Source: Thermaerobacter subterraneus DSM 13965 | GTDB taxonomy: Bacteria; Bacillota; Sulfobacillia; Thermaerobacterales; Thermaerobacteraceae | NCBI RefSeq assembly: GCF_000183545.2 | Contig: NZ_JH976535.1 | Coordinates: forward strand, 2,357,837-2,421,836 | Length of the DNA stretch: 64,000 nt | Direction: 5' to 3' | Shown here: positions 2,434 through 21,973 of the stretch, one piece after another | Numbering within the stretch: the stretch's first letter is position 1 | How the letters are laid out: each line of letters starts with the position of its first letter | The notes under the pieces: generated by a model | Database searches by the model: none | Seen by the model: only the letters and a program-made list of their open reading frames with translations | What the model was told of the DNA's origin: nothing | Translations under genes and position numbers: made by a program

Positions 2434-3042
2434 TCAGCGGGATGCCGGTGCCGGGGCGGACCCGGCACCGCCCTGCTCGACCGGGCCCGACCAGGCGGAC
2501 ATGCCCGGCACGACGTTGACCACCTTCTCGAAGCCGGCCTGTTGCAGGATGCGGCAGGCATAGGCGCTGCGGCGGCCGCTGCGGCAGACCACGGCGATCT
2601 CCGCCGTGCGGTCGAGCCTGGCGGCAAACTCGGACAGCGTCTCGATGGGTACGGAGAGGGCACCGGGGATATGGCCGGCCTCGTACTCCTCCGGTTCCCG
2701 CACGTCGAGCACGGTCAGGGCGTCCCCGGCCTCGAGGCGCCGGGCCAGTTCCTGGCTGCTGATCTCGCGGTCGAAGAGCTGTCCCTTCTCCTTGGTTTCC
2801 GGGACCAGCTTCTTGACATACAGCCGGAGGAAACCTTCGTCCTCCACCACGCCCAGGAACTTGTGCTCCGTCTGCTCACACCAGCCCCGGAAGTCGGCGG
2901 GTGCGCCCTTGTCGGTCGCCAGCACCTCGAGGATCTCCCCGACCTGCAGGGCATCGATCGCCTTGCGCGCCCGCACGATCGGCAACGGGCAGGAAAGGCC
3001 GCGGGCATCCACGGTGGCGCTCGGCTTGAACGTAGCGTTCAC
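2434..3042 (-). CDS. TusA-like sulfur carrier fused to a rhodanese domain
   Basis: 202 residues, GTG start preceded by GAGGGAGGGAG. Residues 8-80 form a TusA-like domain with the carrier motif GLSCPLP (Cys18). Residues 92-190 form a rhodanese domain with the active-site loop VCRSGRRS (Cys153) and the usual LDVREPEEYEAGHIPGA region. Rhodaneses take up sulfane sulfur as a cysteine persulfide and TusA domains pass it on. The architecture resembles part of CstA of the Staphylococcus aureus cst operon (rhodanese, TusA and DsrE in one chain); here DsrE is a separate downstream gene. The C-terminal ten residues are low-complexity Ala/Pro. Confidence 0.9.
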   Translation of the reverse strand: MNATFKPSATVDARGLSCPLPIVRARKAIDALQVGEILEVLATDKGAPADFRGWCEQTEHKFLGVVEDEGFLRLYVKKLVPETKEKGQLFDREISSQELARRLEAGDALTVLDVREPEEYEAGHIPGALSVPIETLSEFAARLDRTAEIAVVCRSGRRSAYACRILQQAGFEKVVNVVPGMSAWSGPVEQGGAGSAPAPASR

Positions 3043-4283: not shown

Positions 4284-4625
4284 TCAGCGACCCCGCCCGG
4301 GGCCGTATTCCACCGGGCCCTTCCACCGCTGCATGCCGCCCACCAGGTTGCGGACGTTGCGGAAACCCATCCCCTGCAGCCATTGCTGGGCCAGGCCGGA
4401 GCGGTTCCCGCTCCGGCAGACGAGGACGATCTCCTGGTCGGACGGCAACTCCCGGTACCGCACGGGTACCTGCCCCAGCGGGAGCAACCGCGCGCCCGGG
4501 ATGTGCCCGCCGGCGTACTCGTCGGGCTCGCGCACGTCGATGATCAGCGGGGCGTTGCCCGCCTCCAGCCGCCGGCGCAGCTCCTCGGGCGTGACGGTGT
4601 CCGGCCACGGAGCGCGCATCGCCAT
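4284..4625 (-). CDS. Single-domain rhodanese sulfurtransferase
   Basis: 113 residues forming one complete rhodanese domain: TPEELRRRLEAG, LIIDVREPDEYAGGHIPGA, and the catalytic loop VLVCRSGNRSG with Cys70. A GGGGGG ribosome site lies about 6 nt before the ATG. It is the first gene of the leftward sulfur operon and starts about 100-150 nt from an A/T-rich regulatory region. The likely role is to accept sulfane sulfur and hand it to the downstream TusA/DsrE or MBL proteins. The donor is not known. Confidence 0.9.
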   Translation of the reverse strand: MAMRAPWPDTVTPEELRRRLEAGNAPLIIDVREPDEYAGGHIPGARLLPLGQVPVRYRELPSDQEIVLVCRSGNRSGLAQQWLQGMGFRNVRNLVGGMQRWKGPVEYGPGRGR

Positions 4626-5505: not shown

Positions 5506-5907
5506 ATGGCGGAGCTGGACTATACGGTGGCCACGGACAAGCCGGTGGACGAGGCCATCCAAGCGCTGCAGTCCGCGCTGGCGGAACGGAAGTTCAGCGC
5601 CCTCTGGCACCTGCACGTCAACGAGAAGCTCCAAGAGAAGGGCTTCCACCTCGAACCCGAGTTCCACATCTTCGAGGTCTGCAATCCCGCCAAGGCCAAG
5701 CAGGCCCTGGAGACCGATCAGAAGGTCGGTTACCTGCTGCCTTGCAAGATCGTGGTGTACGCCGACCGCAACGACGGCAACCGCACGAAGATCGGCCTGC
5801 TGCGCCCGCAGACGCTGATCGGCCTGCTGGGCGACGAGCGGTTTCGTGACCTGGCGACCGAGGTGGAACAGGAGCTGCGCGCGGCGGTGGATGCGGCGGC
5901 CCGCTGA
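5506..5907 (+). CDS. DUF302 family protein
   Basis: 133 residues from an ATG with AGGGAGGG 7 nt upstream. The sequence matches the DUF302 pattern: an N-terminal strand YTVATDKPVDEAIQALQSAL, the segment GFHLEPEFHIFEVCNPAKA, then LLPCKIVVYA and a C-terminal helix. DUF302 proteins have no established biochemical role, but they are often found beside sulfur and redox genes. Cys72 and Cys87 (approximate) sit at the usual places. It lies between the ArsR-type regulator and the CoA-disulfide-reductase-like gene, all in one direction. Confidence 0.85.
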   Translation: MAELDYTVATDKPVDEAIQALQSALAERKFSALWHLHVNEKLQEKGFHLEPEFHIFEVCNPAKAKQALETDQKVGYLLPCKIVVYADRNDGNRTKIGLLRPQTLIGLLGDERFRDLATEVEQELRAAVDAAAR

Positions 5908-6017: not shown

Positions 6018-7397
6018 ATGTCCCGGAGAAAGCGCCTGGTGGTGGTCGGGGGCGTCGCGGCCGGCATGAGCGCCGCCTCCCGGGCGCGTCGCCTCGATCC
6101 TGACCTGGAGATCGAGGTGTTCGAGCGCAGCGGCTTCGTCTCGTACGGGTCTTGCGGCCTGCCCTACTTCGTCGGCGGCCTGGTTCGCGAACCCGGCGAG
6201 CTGGTGGTCTACACGCCGGAGTTCTTCCGCCAGAAACGCGACATCGCCGTTCACGTCCAGCACGAGGTCACGGCCATTCATCCGGACGAACACTACCTGG
6301 AGGTACGCGACCTGGTGACCGGGCGCCAGCGGCAGGTGGAGTTCGACACCTTGATCCTCGCCACGGGCGCCCGCCCCGTCGAGCCGCCCATTCCCGGCCT
6401 CGACCTGAAGGGTGTCCATTTCCTGCGGCTGGTCGAGGACGGCATCGCCATCCGCGAGCACGCCCGGGCCCTGGTGGCCCAGGGGCGACGCAAGGCGGTC
6501 GTCATCGGCGGTGGCTACGTAGGGCTCGAAATGGCCGAGGCCCTGGTCGCCGTCGGCATGGAGGTGGCCATCGTCGAGCGTCTCCCCCAGGTCATGCCCA
6601 ACCTGGACCGGGAGATGGCCGAGCTGGTCCATGATGAATTGCGCCGTCACGGTGTGGCGCTGTATCTGGGCGAGGGGGCGCGGGCCGTGCTGGGCGACGG
6701 TGGCCGCGTGCGGGCGCTGGACACCGACGCCCGCACCCTGCCGGCCGATCTGGTCCTGGTGGCCGTGGGCGTGCGGCCCAATTCCGAGCTGGCCGAGGCG
6801 GCCGGCATCGAGCTGGGCGCCGGGCGGGCGATCAAGGTGGACGAGTTCATGCGCACGTCGCACCCGGCGGTCTATGCCGCCGGCGACTGCGCCGACACCG
6901 TCCACCGGGTCAGCGGCCGGCGCGCCTACATTCCCCTCGGCACCACGGCCAACAAGCAGGGGCGCGTGGCCGGGGAGAACGCCGCCGGCGGCCACGCCCG
7001 CTTCCCCGGCGTACTGGGTACGGCCATCGTCAAGGTCTTCGACCTGGGTGTCGCCCGGACGGGCCTGACCACCCGCGAGGCCGCACTGGCGGGCCTGGAG
7101 GCCGCAGCCACGACGATCCGTCACGGCTCCCGCGCCCACTACTACCCCGGTGCCGGCAAGCTGCACGTACGGCTGGTCCACGGGCCTGACGGCCGCCTGC
7201 TGGGCGCCCAGATGGCGGGACCGGTCGACGCCGTCTTGCGCATCGACGCGCTGGTGGCAGCCCTCCATGCAGGCATGACGGTGGACCAGCTCTACGAACT
7301 GGACCTGGCCTACGCACCCCCCTTCGCGCCCGTGTGGGATCCGGTGCTGGTGGCCGCTCGCCAGGCCATGAACGCCATCCGGGGCGTGGCGGACTAG
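6018..7397 (+). CDS. CoA-disulfide / CoA-persulfide reductase-like flavoprotein
   Basis: 459 residues of the pyridine-nucleotide-disulfide oxidoreductase family. The N-terminal FAD motif is VVVGGVAAGMSAASRARR, and the single catalytic Cys46 sits in SYGSCGLPYFVGG, the hallmark of CoA-disulfide reductase, NADH oxidase and CoA-persulfide reductase. The NAD(P)H motif is VIGGGYVGLEMAEAL (about 163-177), the second FAD motif is PAVYAAGDCA, and the C-terminal dimerisation domain is present. AGGAGA precedes the ATG by 9 nt. Given the neighbouring rhodaneses and persulfide dioxygenase, reduction of CoA persulfide or polysulfide is the best guess. Confidence 0.9.
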   Translation: MSRRKRLVVVGGVAAGMSAASRARRLDPDLEIEVFERSGFVSYGSCGLPYFVGGLVREPGELVVYTPEFFRQKRDIAVHVQHEVTAIHPDEHYLEVRDLVTGRQRQVEFDTLILATGARPVEPPIPGLDLKGVHFLRLVEDGIAIREHARALVAQGRRKAVVIGGGYVGLEMAEALVAVGMEVAIVERLPQVMPNLDREMAELVHDELRRHGVALYLGEGARAVLGDGGRVRALDTDARTLPADLVLVAVGVRPNSELAEAAGIELGAGRAIKVDEFMRTSHPAVYAAGDCADTVHRVSGRRAYIPLGTTANKQGRVAGENAAGGHARFPGVLGTAIVKVFDLGVARTGLTTREAALAGLEAAATTIRHGSRAHYYPGAGKLHVRLVHGPDGRLLGAQMAGPVDAVLRIDALVAALHAGMTVDQLYELDLAYAPPFAPVWDPVLVAARQAMNAIRGVAD

Positions 7398-7438
7398 ATG
7401 CGTCTCCGGCGGCGCATGCAGCCGGTCGCCCCCGCAGG

Positions 7439-7455
7439 CGGGAACACTGTTCCCG
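7439..7455. promoter_or_regulatory. Perfect 17-bp palindrome between the reductase and thioredoxin-fold genes
   Basis: CGGGAACACTGTTCCCG has two perfect 8-bp arms around one central base. It lies 41 bp after the reductase stop and about 150 bp before the next start. It may be an operator. It resembles a LexA box but has a 3-bp rather than a 4-bp spacer between GAAC and GTTC, so LexA binding is doubtful. Confidence 0.5.
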
Positions 7456-7603
7456 AGAGCGCTGGTTTCACTGGTTTTGGAGGTTTTGAAGGTTTCCGGT
7501 CGGGCGGTGCCCGTTCGGCGCCAACCGGCAGCCGGCGCGCCGCCCGGCCGGGGCTCCCGGGATCCGCAAAGAGAGGGATCCCCGAGAGGAGGTGACGGAA
7601 GGG

Positions 7604-8254
7604 ATGAAGATATCCGAGCAGGACCGGCGGGAGATCCAGCGGCGCTTTGAGGCGATGGAATCACCGGTGGTCCTCAAGCTGTTCGTCCGCGCGGACAAAG
7701 ACGAGTGCCCCTACTGCGAGGACACCCGCCAGCTGCTGGAAGCGGTGGCGGAGCTCGACGACCGCATCACCCTCGAGGTCCACGATGTCGAACGGGAACC
7801 CGAGCTGGCCGAGCGCCACGGCGTCGACATGGTCCCGGCCATCCTGTTCGCCCGGGCGGACGGCAGCGACACCGGGATGCGGTTTTACGGCATTCCGGCC
7901 GGTTACGAGTTCGGGACGCTGATCGACGACATCGTCGACGTCTCCCGCGGTGTCGCGGGGCTGTCCCCGGAAACCGAGGCATACCTGCGGTCGCTGGACA
8001 CCGACGTCCACCTGCAGGTATTCGTCACGCCGACGTGACCGTACTGTCCCCGGGCGGTCCGCCTGGCTCACAAGATGGCCCTCGCCAGCGACCGGGTGCG
8101 GGCCGACGCCATCGAGGCCATGGAGTTCCCCGATCTGGCCAACCGGTTCGCGGTCTTCGGTGTTCCCAAGACCGTGGTGAACGGGTCGGCTGCCGTTGAG
8201 GGCGCGGCACCGGAACCGCACCTGCTGGCGTTGATCAAGGAGGCCCTTTCCTGA
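7604..8254 (+). CDS. Two-domain protein disulfide oxidoreductase with in-frame TGA (candidate selenoprotein)
   Basis: Reading through TGA at 8036-8038 gives 216 residues. Two thioredoxin folds are seen. The N-terminal one has CPYC at residues 35-38 and a cis-Pro loop at VDMVPAILF. The C-terminal one has VFVTPT, then TGA at codon 145, then PYCPRAVRLAH and a cis-Pro loop at FGVPKTVV. The TGA replaces exactly the first Cys of the second CPYC motif, and the frame is open and family-like on both sides. This is the architecture of protein disulfide oxidoreductases (Grx-like PDO, about 220 residues). A hairpin with a GGUCC loop lies right after the TGA. The ATG has a perfect AGGAGGTGA 8 nt upstream. 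Selenocysteine is the leading explanation; a Cys-to-stop mutation or sequencing error is the alternative. Confidence 0.8.
8036..8066 (+). promoter_or_regulatory. SECIS-like hairpin following the in-frame TGA
   Basis: Counting the U of UGA as 1, bases 15-20 (CCGGGC) pair with 26-31 (GCCUGG; one G-U pair), closing a 5-nt loop GGUCC at 21-25. In the well-studied Escherichia coli fdhF element the loop is GGUC and starts at position 22, with G and U needed for SelB binding. The bulged U of fdhF is not seen here. Function is inferred. Confidence 0.55.
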
Positions 8255-8274
8255 CAGGGTTCCCTCGCCCACGA

Positions 8275-8309
8275 CAACCCGCCGGTCTCCAGGGGAGGCC
8301 GGCGGGTTG
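8275..8309 (+). terminator. Strong hairpin at the end of the thioredoxin-fold gene
   Basis: CAACCCGCCGG at 8275-8285 pairs perfectly with CCGGCGGGTTG at 8299-8309 across a 13-nt loop, 20 nt after the stop. The downstream T-run is weak. It separates two convergent genes and could serve both. Confidence 0.6.
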
Positions 8310-8375
8310 CTGTGGCACCCCGCCGGCAGGGCGGCGGGCAAGGACGGCCGGCAGGGGCAAGGATGCCCACCCCGG

Positions 8376-9068
8376 TCAAGCCGGCTCGACCAGGATGGCG
8401 TACTGCTCATGCTCCGGATGGTGCTTGCGGCCCAGGATCGTGAAGCCCTCACCGGCCAACCATCCGGCCAGGTCCGCTTCAGCAATGCGCTCCTCCCGGG
8501 GCGGGCCCACCTCGCCGGCCCCCTCCGGATCGAACTCCGCCACCACCATGCGGGCGCCCGGCAACAGCCAGCGGTGAAGGCGACCGAGGACCGCCCGGGG
8601 ATCCGGAATATGGTGGAGCACATGGGCCAGGACCACCTTGCGGGCATGCTGGGGCGGGATGACCCCGGCCAGATCGTCGTGGGCGATGTCCGCCTGGACG
8701 GCGTGCACGTTGTCCAGGCCCTCCCCCTCCACCTGCCGGCGCAGAAAGCGCAGGGCCTCGGGCCAGTGGTCCACCGCGTACACGCGGCCATGGGGCCGCA
8801 CCCGGTGGGCGGCCAGCAGGCTGGTGAGCCCCGGACCTGCACCCAGGTCCACCAGGTGATCCCCGGGCCGGAGATCCAGCCACTCCAGCCATTCCTCCAC
8901 CAGGGCTTGACGCCGTTGCTGGTGCTCGAAGATCTCCGCCCAGGAGACCTGGGCCTCCCACGGTCCGTGGTGCCCGGCGCCGTGGCCCCTGCGCCCGTGG
9001 CGCCCAGCCTCCGGCGCGGGGTGGCTGGCCGCGCCGTCATGGTTCGGCGCAAACGGCGGGTATGCCAT
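8376..9068 (-). CDS. Class I SAM-dependent methyltransferase
   Basis: 230 residues. The SAM-binding motif I is LVDLGAGPGLTS (about 71-82), followed by the acidic loop VYAVDHWPEAL and the motif HVLHHIPDPRAVLGRLHRWLLPGA typical of small-molecule or ubiquinone-type methyltransferases. The first 35 residues are low-complexity with many His and Gly. GGGGGAGGTGGGGGC precedes the ATG. It is convergent with the thioredoxin-fold gene and divergent from the aminopeptidase. Nothing in the neighbourhood identifies the substrate. Confidence 0.82.
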   Translation of the reverse strand: MAYPPFAPNHDGAASHPAPEAGRHGRRGHGAGHHGPWEAQVSWAEIFEHQQRRQALVEEWLEWLDLRPGDHLVDLGAGPGLTSLLAAHRVRPHGRVYAVDHWPEALRFLRRQVEGEGLDNVHAVQADIAHDDLAGVIPPQHARKVVLAHVLHHIPDPRAVLGRLHRWLLPGARMVVAEFDPEGAGEVGPPREERIAEADLAGWLAGEGFTILGRKHHPEHEQYAILVEPA

Positions 9069-19253: not shown

Positions 19254-21083
<1,830 letters not shown>

Positions 21084-21092
21084 GTTCGCCAT

Positions 21093-21510
21093 GTCCCTCC
21101 TCACAGCGTCCGCCTGGCTACCACTGCGCGCAGCTGCTGGCGCGAGCGGTGAATCTGACAGGCCTGAATCCGGATGCGTGCAAGCCGTCCGGCGGGCATG
21201 CGGGCCCGCCCGCCGGCCAGGACGAAACGGCCGGCCTGCCCGGGGCACCCCGGCGTGCGACGGCCCACGACGGACTCTGGGCCGGCGCCGCGGGGTCGGG
21301 ACCCCACGACCCGGGAGCACACGATAACCCCCGGCCACGCCGCGCCGGGCCGCAGGGGCAGCCACCGGCGATCCACGCGCAGGGCGCCCGCCGAAGCGGC
21401 CCGCGGACACGGACAGCCTTCTGGGAAAACAGCACGGGAAAACCCGCTGAGGGCATGGGGAAGGGCGATGCACTGGAGGCGGGATGGCGGGTGAGGGTTC
21501 GCGCCACCTG
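21093..21510 (-). other. Long glmS leader between ribozyme and start codon
   Basis: About 420 nt separate the ribozyme core from glmS. The stretch is GC-rich and has a GAGGAGG ribosome site just before the start. Apart from short inverted repeats I see no gene, promoter or further riboswitch in it. Confidence 0.5.
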
Positions 21511-21650
21511 GCCCGTCTTGTCCCCGGGATCGCTCCCGGGTTTTGCCGGGCCGCTCACGGTCGTGGCCAACCGCCGGGCGATCCGCCGAAACCTTCGATA
21601 CGCCCGGTCCTCGTCAACTCGCCGGCCTGCCGCCGGCGAGTCCTGGCGCT
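21511..21650 (-). ncRNA. glmS ribozyme: glmS ribozyme (GlcN6P-activated self-cleaving riboswitch)
   Basis: Read on the minus strand the element begins A/GCGCC, with cleavage expected between 21650 and 21649. It continues with a perfect 10-bp P2 stem (ACTCGCCGGC with GCCGGCGAGT), then TTGACGAGG, CGGGCG, TATCGA, TTTCGGCGGAT, CGCCCG and GCGGTTG in the same order as the Bacillus ribozyme core. A CCCGGGATCGCTCCCGGG hairpin at 21523-21540 could be P4. The 3' boundary is approximate. The class cleaves glmS mRNA when glucosamine 6-phosphate binds. Confidence 0.92.
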
Positions 21651-21973
21651 AGCAGGCTCCGTTCCTGCTTTCGGTCTGTCCTGGCAAACCCTCATGGTGC
21701 ACCGCGACGAACCCGCTACCGGACGGTCCGTGACGGCCGCACCTCGCGGCTCCCTTTCCCCATGGGCGGCGTTCGGATCGGCTTCCGCCTTACCGGCTAC
21801 CGGCTCCTGCCCGCCACCGGCCCTCGGCCCTCACCTCCTCCCCGGACACCGGCGCTCACCATGCCGCCGCGCGCCCCCGGTGCCCTGCGACTCCCTTGCG
21901 CGGGGGTGCCTGGCCGGCGACCCGGTGCTGGGCCGGGCAACCCGCCAGGGCACCACCCTGTTCCAGGCACCCC

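What the first reader, a model, noticed from the sequence alone, without database searches (positions are those of the whole stretch)
7604..8254. Candidate new selenoprotein: PDO with UPYC in place of CPYC
Sequence: TGA at 8036-8038 falls in frame exactly at the first Cys position of the second CxxC motif (T-TGA-P-Y-C-P-R). The frame is open for 144 codons before and 71 codons after, and the downstream part is a complete thioredoxin fold. A 6-bp hairpin with loop GGUCC begins 14 nt after the U of UGA. Established: Sec commonly replaces catalytic Cys in thioredoxin-fold proteins, and the bacterial SECIS lies right after the UGA with a G in the loop; fdhF has loop GGUC at almost the same distance. 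Inference: this protein carries Sec145 and works in the sulfur/thiol redox cluster. I do not recall a selenocysteine form of two-domain PDO being described.
Basis: partly seen in the sequence, partly recalled or inferred. Interest (0 to 1): 0.93.

Follow-up and report, generated by a model that had tools for sequence, protein, structure and literature searches.

The report
Selenocysteine disulfide oxidoreductase with persulfide genes
A heat-loving bacterium, likely a Thermaerobacter, carries a disulfide-handling enzyme gene with an in-frame stop codon exactly where relatives have their key cysteine; the codon is predicted to be read as selenocysteine, and genes of this already catalogued kind turn out to be widespread in its class of bacteria.

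Summary
TGA 8036-8038 lies in frame at the first catalytic Cys of the second CxxC of a two-domain protein disulfide oxidoreductase (TIGR02187, 271 bits, cut-off 185). The genome has tRNA-Sec (UCA), selA, selB and a UGA-bearing selD. In its class, 105 of 136 domains examined have TGA at that column and no other TGA in the match; at least 75 of 154 genomes carry one, and 73 of those 75 have tRNA-Sec or selB. The 6-bp stem after the codon is complete in 70 of 85 Sec genes but 1 of 30 Cys genes of the class, and its pairs covary. Sec insertion is very likely.

'New selenoprotein' is not upheld: Zhang et al. 2006 listed the family ('homolog of AhpF N-terminal domain', TIGR02187, UxxC), with Symbiobacterium; reviews still call it predicted.

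Added here: at least 11 Sec/Cys switches; an active-site peptide whose codons lie close to a SECIS stem; loss of the N-terminal CxxC in 73 of 92 full-length Sec forms of the class (not in this one); and rhodanese genes near 31 of 106 Sec loci, pointing to persulfide or disulfide reduction. Function remains inferred.

The parts
7604..8254 (+). Two-domain protein disulfide oxidoreductase gene (PDO, TIGR02187), 216 residues when the in-frame TGA is read through
   Evidence: NCBIfam TIGR02187.2 271.1 bits vs cut-off 185; AlphaFold mean pLDDT 96.1; best PDB match 1a8l, TM 0.94
8036..8038 (+). TGA codon 145, predicted selenocysteine, at the first Cys position of the C-terminal CxxC
   Evidence: column alignment
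8045..8047 (+). TGT codon of Cys148, the predicted resolving cysteine of the U145-P-Y-C148 site
   Evidence: invariant among the 20 rows
8050..8066 (+). Predicted SECIS hairpin: 6-bp stem 8050-8055/8061-8066, loop GGUCC
   Evidence: structure; all 6 pairs in 70 of 85 Sec genes; covariation
7706..7717 (+). N-terminal C35-P-Y-C38 motif, kept in this copy
6018..7397 (+). Pyridine nucleotide-disulfide reductase like CoA-disulfide reductase, next upstream gene on the same strand
   Evidence: TIGR03385 450 bits, below its cut-off 578.8
5506..5907 (+). DUF302 protein
   Evidence: PF03625 62 bits
4972..5337 (+). ArsR/SmtB-family regulator
   Evidence: NF033788 80 bits vs cut-off 55
4284..4625 (-). Single-domain rhodanese
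   Evidence: PF00581 89 bits
3058..4233 (-). Rhodanese plus metallo-beta-lactamase-fold protein, persulfide-dioxygenase-like (start codon not determined)
   Evidence: PF00753 and PF00581; NF040641 69.6 bits, far below its cut-off 625
2434..3042 (-). TusA plus rhodanese fusion
   Evidence: PF01206 and PF00581
1960..2415 (-). DsrE/DsrE2-like protein
   Evidence: PF13686 117.6 bits
1069..1842 (-). TauE/SafE-type sulfite exporter family protein
   Evidence: PF01925 163 bits

Best explanation
The gene at 7604-8254 encodes a two-domain protein disulfide oxidoreductase whose in-frame UGA, at the catalytic-Cys column of the C-terminal CxxC, is predicted to be read as selenocysteine through the hairpin that follows it, giving an enzyme that would likely reduce disulfides or persulfides in a sulfur-handling gene cluster. 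SHOWN: the open frame; TGA/Cys alternation at this one column in relatives; tRNA-Sec(UCA), selA, selB and selD in the genome; a stem kept with covariation in Sec genes; neighbour genes of the rhodanese, TusA, DsrE, metallo-beta-lactamase (persulfide-dioxygenase-like) and CoA-disulfide-reductase-like families. INFERRED: SelB binds the hairpin and delivers Sec-tRNA; the Sec145 selenolate attacks a disulfide or persulfide; Cys148 resolves the intermediate as a selenenylsulfide; the thioredoxin reductase found elsewhere in the genome, or the neighbouring CoA-disulfide-reductase-like enzyme, re-reduces it.
For: Machinery: tRNA-Sec 82.8 bits with anticodon tca, selB 313 bits vs cut-off 242, selA 577 bits, selD 401 bits, itself with an in-frame TGA in AG[TGA]GCK. 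Homology: 105 of 136 domains examined in the class have TGA at the catalytic column and 31 have Cys; each TGA-bearing match has exactly one TGA. Co-occurrence: 65 of 75 Sec-PDO genomes have tRNA-Sec and 8 of the other 10 have selB over cut-off. SECIS: all 6 pairs in 70 of 85 non-redundant Sec genes, 1 of 30 same-class Cys genes, 1 of 78 Cys genes from other genomes; recoding the Sec peptides with codons of class Cys relatives gives 5.8 of 85 on average, 14 at most in 500; shuffling codons among Sec genes gives 54 on average, 60 at most in 2000. On 41 more diverse Sec sequences 93.1% of pair cells are standard pairs against 85.4% in shuffles (0 of 500 as high), 4 of 6 pairs change on both sides, and sliding the partner by 1-3 columns drops pairing to 21-50%; RNAalifold on the same alignment predicts this hairpin, with its two lower pairs shifted by one. 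Selection: dN/dS about 0.13 after the TGA, 0.11 before it. Fold: mean pLDDT 96.1, best match P. furiosus PDO 1a8l, TM 0.94. Context: sulfur genes around the window copy; a rhodanese-cluster gene near 31 of 106 Sec loci against 10 of 110 Cys loci, in 23 Sec loci upstream on the same strand within 150 nt. Electron donor: thioredoxin reductase at 404 bits in the genome. Literature: in S. solfataricus PDO the C-terminal site has the fundamental role in thiol-transferase activity (PMC7465337, passage).
Against: No protein, transcript or selenium data. The single-sequence hairpin has z -1.04 against shuffles. 15 of 85 Sec genes lack the complete stem in this register; several seem, by eye only, to have a shifted or bulged one. 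Shuffling codons among Sec genes leaves the mean number of pairs unchanged (5.51 vs 5.49). RNAalifold run in a script on all 85 sequences returned no structure, energy 0.0, unlike the tool's run on 41. Related sequences can beat shuffles without structure, as the tool warns. Two Sec-PDO genomes, G121 (96% complete) and G137 (63%), have neither tRNA-Sec nor selB found. Public Thermaerobacter proteins P0002 (98% identical) and P0003 (80%) are printed with Cys at this site; the tools write Sec as C for other programs, so I cannot tell whether these are real Cys forms. Neighbourhood evidence for persulfide chemistry is association only, and the other two Sec-PDO copies of this genome have other neighbours.
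Confidence: 0.9

Rival explanations
1. The UGA is a genuine stop: the gene makes only the N-terminal thioredoxin domain (144 residues), and the rest is a decaying remnant or a separately started second domain.
For: Public gene calls of close relatives end at the TGA (P0004, P0007 and P0016 read; P0005 and P0006 have 144 residues); no recoding is experimentally shown.
Against: Codons after the TGA are about as constrained as those before it (dN/dS about 0.13 vs 0.11); the frame continues in 105 TGA-bearing domains of 75 genomes; the resolving Cys and the V187-P188 loop, invariant, lie after the TGA; Sec machinery is present.
Confidence: 0.04
2. The UGA is read through as another amino acid (for example Trp or Cys by near-cognate decoding), not as selenocysteine.
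For: No direct evidence; low-level UGA readthrough in bacteria is recalled, not searched.
Against: The UGA replaces a catalytic Cys only; tRNA-Sec or selB accompanies it in 73 of 75 genomes; a covarying stem follows the UGA and is mostly incomplete in Cys relatives.
Confidence: 0.04
3. The enzyme is a Sec-PDO, but its role is general protein-disulfide reduction or supply of electrons to peroxiredoxins, not persulfide handling. (Nested within the best explanation; it contests only the function.)
For: Characterised archaeal PDOs take electrons from thioredoxin reductase and feed peroxiredoxins (PMC7465337, PMC7278568, passages); an AhpC/TSA-family gene lies about 3 kb from the second copy in this genome; rhodanese is near only 31 of 106 Sec loci.
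Against: The window copy sits in a sulfur gene cluster, and rhodanese is the commonest recurrent neighbour of Sec-PDO.
Confidence: 0.4
4. Sequencing or assembly error at 8036.
For: None found.
Against: The same TGA is in 4 of 4 genomes of the genus, including G001, whose contig length equals the published T. marianensis chromosome (PMC3035304).
Confidence: 0.01

Closest known systems
Selenoprotein family 'homolog of AhpF N-terminal domain (Grx-like domain protein)', TIGR02187, UxxC (Zhang et al. 2006, PMC1794560; PMC13188914 Table 1, representative ABB15282.1)
   Same: Same HMM family and UxxC motif. Probably the same class: G028, a class member with a Sec-PDO, has the chromosome length that I recall for Symbiobacterium thermophilum, which the 2006 paper lists.
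   Different: The 2006 paper counts two members; here at least 75 of 154 genomes of the class carry it, up to three verified copies per genome, most without the N-terminal CxxC, and some beside rhodanese genes. The window copy keeps both sites.
Archaeal/bacterial protein disulfide oxidoreductase (P. furiosus PDO 1a8l, A. aeolicus 2ayt, A. pernix 2hls)
   Same: Two thioredoxin folds, 42% identity to 1a8l, both active-site motifs in place.
   Different: UGA (predicted Sec) in place of the first Cys of the C-terminal site.
AhpF N-terminal domain
   Same: Tandem thioredoxin fold (5h29, 1zyn).
   Different: No flavoprotein reductase part; TIGR03140 70 bits against a cut-off of 503.
Sec glutaredoxin and Sec thioredoxin (PMC13188914 Table 1)
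   Same: UxxC site; experimentally verified selenoproteins.
   Different: Listed there under other families (PF00462, PF00085).

Membership tests
TIGR02187 protein disulfide oxidoreductase | HMM score above the curated cut-off | tested here: met
   271.1 vs 185 bits
TIGR02187 protein disulfide oxidoreductase | Two tandem thioredoxin folds | tested here: met
   AlphaFold mean pLDDT 96.1; 1a8l TM 0.94
TIGR02187 protein disulfide oxidoreductase | CxxC in each domain | tested here: met
   C35PYC38 and U145PYC148, the latter with UGA for the first Cys
TIGR02187 protein disulfide oxidoreductase | Disulfide reductase or isomerase activity | not testable with these tools
   needs purified protein
Bacterial selenoprotein gene | In-frame UGA aligned with Cys of homologues | tested here: met
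   105 U and 31 C at the column in the class; 80 C and 1 U among the 80 genome-contig loci
Bacterial selenoprotein gene | SECIS hairpin just after the UGA with G in the loop | tested here: met
   Present; kept and covarying across Sec genes; G22 invariant in 41 rows; single-sequence z-score not significant
Bacterial selenoprotein gene | selA, selB, selC, selD in the genome | tested here: met
Bacterial selenoprotein gene | Selenium in the native protein | not testable with these tools
   needs 75Se labelling or mass spectrometry
Selenoprotein 'homolog of AhpF N-terminal domain' (Zhang 2006) | TIGR02187 domain with UxxC | tested here: met
   against the tables of PMC13188914 and PMC9312934
Selenoprotein 'homolog of AhpF N-terminal domain' (Zhang 2006) | Direct alignment with the type sequence ABB15282.1 | not tested
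   sequence was not fetched
AhpF (alkyl hydroperoxide reductase subunit F) | C-terminal flavoprotein reductase domains | tested here: not met
   216 residues; TIGR03140 70 vs 503 bits

The most novel reading that the evidence does not exclude
The active-site peptide of PDO is a ready-made SECIS: the codons for C-P-R-A-V-R-L-A-H after the catalytic Cys often lie one or two synonymous changes from a SelB hairpin, so this enzyme flips between Cys and Sec with unusual ease. That would make the window's class, where half the genomes carry Sec-PDO, a natural experiment in selenium use; most Sec copies there dropped the N-terminal disulfide site and became single-site Sec reductases, coupled in several families to rhodanese and persulfide metabolism.
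Probability: 0.4. Interest if true: 0.75.

Novelty: new member of a known kind. Interest (0 to 1): 0.5.

Why it matters
It gives comparative support to a selenoprotein family that reviews still list as only predicted, and whose genes public annotation can cut at the UGA. The rhodanese link suggests a testable role in persulfide metabolism.

Tried and rejected
Rfam search of the window at gathering scores found only a glmS ribozyme. ARAGORN found no tRNA in the window; tRNA-Sec lies elsewhere. Of the 17 RF01852 matches in the genome (4 over the cut-off) I checked the anticodon of the best only. RNAalifold in a script on 85 Sec sequences gave no structure; pair counts did, and I later ran the alignment, pair-count and folding tools on 41 of the 85 Sec sequences, thinned at 86% identity. 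A first pass that did not turn minus-strand loci gave nonsense for them and was redone. An ORF-based neighbour count gave rhodanese at 22 of 106 Sec loci and 8 of 109 Cys loci; six-frame clustering gave 31 of 106 and 10 of 110. I considered calling the CsoR-family neighbour (18 Sec and 6 Cys loci) a CstR persulfide sensor; NCBIfam gave only weak RicR/RcnR/FrmR matches and the Cys spacing does not fit what I recall of CstR, so I do not claim it. No sigma-70 promoter or terminator pattern was found at 7300-8420.

Limits of the counts. One search dropped domains with E above 1e-12, matches not covering the catalytic column, and repeats with the same last 80 residues in one genome; its 136 domains include weak ones (15 under 130 bits, down to 62). 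The match table was cut off, and I fetched the stronger matches only, so 105 Sec domains and 75 genomes are lower bounds. One search used stricter filters and E 1e-9, so tRNA-Sec may be missed in some genomes. The tree used 163 of 178 rows after removing near-copies, and had left out most even-numbered genome-contig loci beforehand.

Papers: PMC1794560, PMC13188914, PMC9312934, PMC12013277, PMC1242214, PMC3035304, PMC3558970, PMC7465337 and PMC7278568 were seen as found passages (tables where quoted); all others as search listings only. Searches behind 'I found no report of a rhodanese link, of single-site Sec-PDO, or of Sulfobacillus or Thermaerobacter selenoproteins'. One search needed three of five terms, so a paper with only two would be missed; most subscription papers are not held.

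Full report
WHAT IS THERE. The window holds an open frame from ATG 7604 to the stop at 8252-8254, interrupted only by TGA 8036-8038. Read through, it is a 216-residue protein disulfide oxidoreductase: NCBIfam TIGR02187.2 (PDO_seleno_TRX) 271.1 bits against a cut-off of 185, Pfam Thioredoxin_3 in two stretches, best solved relative P. furiosus PDO 1a8l at E 6e-51. AlphaFold gives mean pLDDT 96.1; Foldseek puts 1a8l first with TM 0.94, followed by other PDOs and AhpF N-terminal domains. The TGA sits at the first Cys of the C-terminal CxxC; the N-terminal C35PYC38 and Cys148 are present.

THE GENOME CAN MAKE SELENOPROTEINS. The same genome (G000, 2.89 Mb, 2 contigs) holds tRNA-Sec (82.8 bits, anticodon tca), selB (313 bits, over cut-off), selA and selD, the last with its own in-frame TGA in AG[TGA]GCK. 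The organism is most likely a Thermaerobacter: G001, same genus, has a contig of exactly the published T. marianensis chromosome length (PMC3035304), and the closest database protein is named from T. litoralis.

RELATIVES. A search of 41 genomes (this one and 40 relatives) with the protein matched in 22; the TGA is in 4 of 4 genomes of the genus. In the class, 134 of 154 genomes have some match to the profile at E 1e-3; weak ones are probably other thioredoxins. I fetched the stronger matches and located the catalytic column by HMM: of 136 domains, 105 have TGA and 31 Cys; each TGA-bearing match has exactly one TGA, always there. The 105 lie in 75 genomes; seven, this one among them, have three verified copies. 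65 of the 75 have tRNA-Sec, 8 of the other 10 have selB, and two have neither. In a sample of 398 genomes of the phylum, 28 have a PDO at E 1e-40 or better; 19 lie outside the class, of which 7 show one TGA, verified at the site in the six whose loci I read, all six with the N-terminal CxxC.

SECIS. Over 85 non-redundant Sec genes all six pairs form in 70; in same-class Cys genes in 1 of 30, in Cys genes of other genomes in 1 of 78. Recoding the Sec peptides with the codons of class Cys relatives gives 5.8 of 85 on average (14 at most in 500). Shuffling codons within the Sec set gives 54 complete stems on average (60 at most in 2000), with an unchanged mean number of pairs (all). On 41 of these sequences, thinned at 86% identity, 93.1% of pair cells are standard against 85.4% in shuffles, 13 cells in 4 of the 6 pairs change on both sides (shuffled mean 1.8), no shuffle of 500 reaches the covariation score, and sliding the partner by 1-3 columns leaves 21-50% paired. 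RNAalifold predicts the hairpin on that alignment, with the two lower pairs shifted by one; a scripted run on all 85 had returned no structure. Relatedness can inflate such counts. In two genomes outside the class Leu became Thr while the stem reads CCGTGC/GCACGG. The one same-class Cys gene with a complete stem, in G122, is sister to a Sec gene, which fits the remnant SECIS-like structures reported in PMC1794560; the other complete one, L048, is in a Chloroflexota MAG and was not explained.

SWITCHING. On a quick tree of 163 rows the Sec/Cys label needs 20 changes, at least 11 of them forced by well-supported branches; a single Sec clade is rejected (p-AU 3e-5). Many forks are open and some branches long. 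The window copy groups with Chloroflexota Cys proteins (L047, L051; supports 86, 91 and 96), away from the second copy of its genome and from the third copies of its genus, so its Sec was perhaps gained after a transfer (inference). Among Cys relatives 24 of 108 are within two synonymous changes of a complete stem (13 of 30 in the class), against 3.5% of 17,399 other windows of the same genes; but for 67 of the 108 no synonymous route exists. So the active-site peptide is unusually often close to SECIS-forming. That is suggestive, not proof of a cause.

ONE SITE OR TWO. Of 92 full-length Sec domains in the class 19 keep the N-terminal CxxC and 73 do not, 71 of these with no Cys in the first 90 matched residues; of 26 full-length Cys domains of the class 7 keep it, so loss follows lineage as well as Sec; all 81 rows from genome contigs (80 Cys, 1 Sec) keep it, but they were ranked by likeness to a both-site query. 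In S. solfataricus PDO the C-terminal site carries thiol-transferase activity and both sites are needed for isomerase activity (PMC7465337), so the single-site forms would be reductases without isomerase activity (inference). The window copy has both.

CONTEXT. Around the window gene lie TauE/SafE, DsrE-like, TusA-rhodanese, rhodanese-MBL, rhodanese, ArsR, DUF302 and CoA-disulfide-reductase-like genes. Across loci, rhodanese is the commonest recurrent neighbour: 31 of 106 Sec loci against 10 of 110 Cys loci; a stricter ORF-based count gave 22 of 106 and 8 of 109. In 23 Sec loci it is upstream on the same strand within 150 nt. The CoA-disulfide-reductase neighbour is not specific to Sec (6 of 106 Sec, 13 of 109 Cys). 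Loci are related to each other and flanks differ in length, so this is association. The second and third copies in this genome have other neighbours (two-component system, AhpC/TSA protein and multicopper oxidase; housekeeping genes). A thioredoxin reductase is present.

NOVELTY. PMC1794560 lists 'homolog of AhpF, amino-terminal domain' with two selenoproteins and two Cys-to-Sec events, in Carboxydothermus and Symbiobacterium. PMC9312934 and PMC13188914 assign it TIGR02187 and UxxC among predicted families. So this is a new member of a known, experimentally unverified kind. I did not find the extent in this class, the loss of the first site, the number of switches, the SECIS-prone peptide or the rhodanese link in print, within the limits of that library.

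Noticed in passing
window 21499-21661 (-): glmS ribozyme (RF00234, 82 bits) just upstream of the long frame 19254-21473(-), which looks like glucosamine-6-phosphate synthase (by eye, no family search); ordinary.
   Followed up: no
window 30097 (-): Another TGA with open, GC3-rich frames on both sides in a scan of the window; perhaps two adjacent genes in one frame, not examined.
   Followed up: no
L044 (G000:C1:1627908-1628843): selD of this genome carries an in-frame TGA in the motif AG[TGA]GCK, so SelD is itself a predicted selenoprotein.
   Followed up: partly
L156 and L157 (G000:C1:1043252-1043959 and 326319-327128): Two further Sec-PDO paralogues with UPHC sites in the same genome; the third matches the query as two separate halves with a long gap between them.
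   Followed up: partly
L239 (G127) and 17 other Sec loci: A CsoR-family regulator recurs near Sec-PDO genes, in 18 Sec loci and 6 Cys loci; sensor type not determined.
   Followed up: partly
L245-L252: Divergent Sec domains with sites such as TPTUTFC and SPTUTRC (about 100-125 bits), whose place in the tree is unsure because of long branches.
   Followed up: no
L048 (Chloroflexota MAG JAJRVT010000163.1): A Cys-form PDO gene outside the class whose codons after the Cys form the complete six-pair stem; a SECIS remnant or chance.
   Followed up: no
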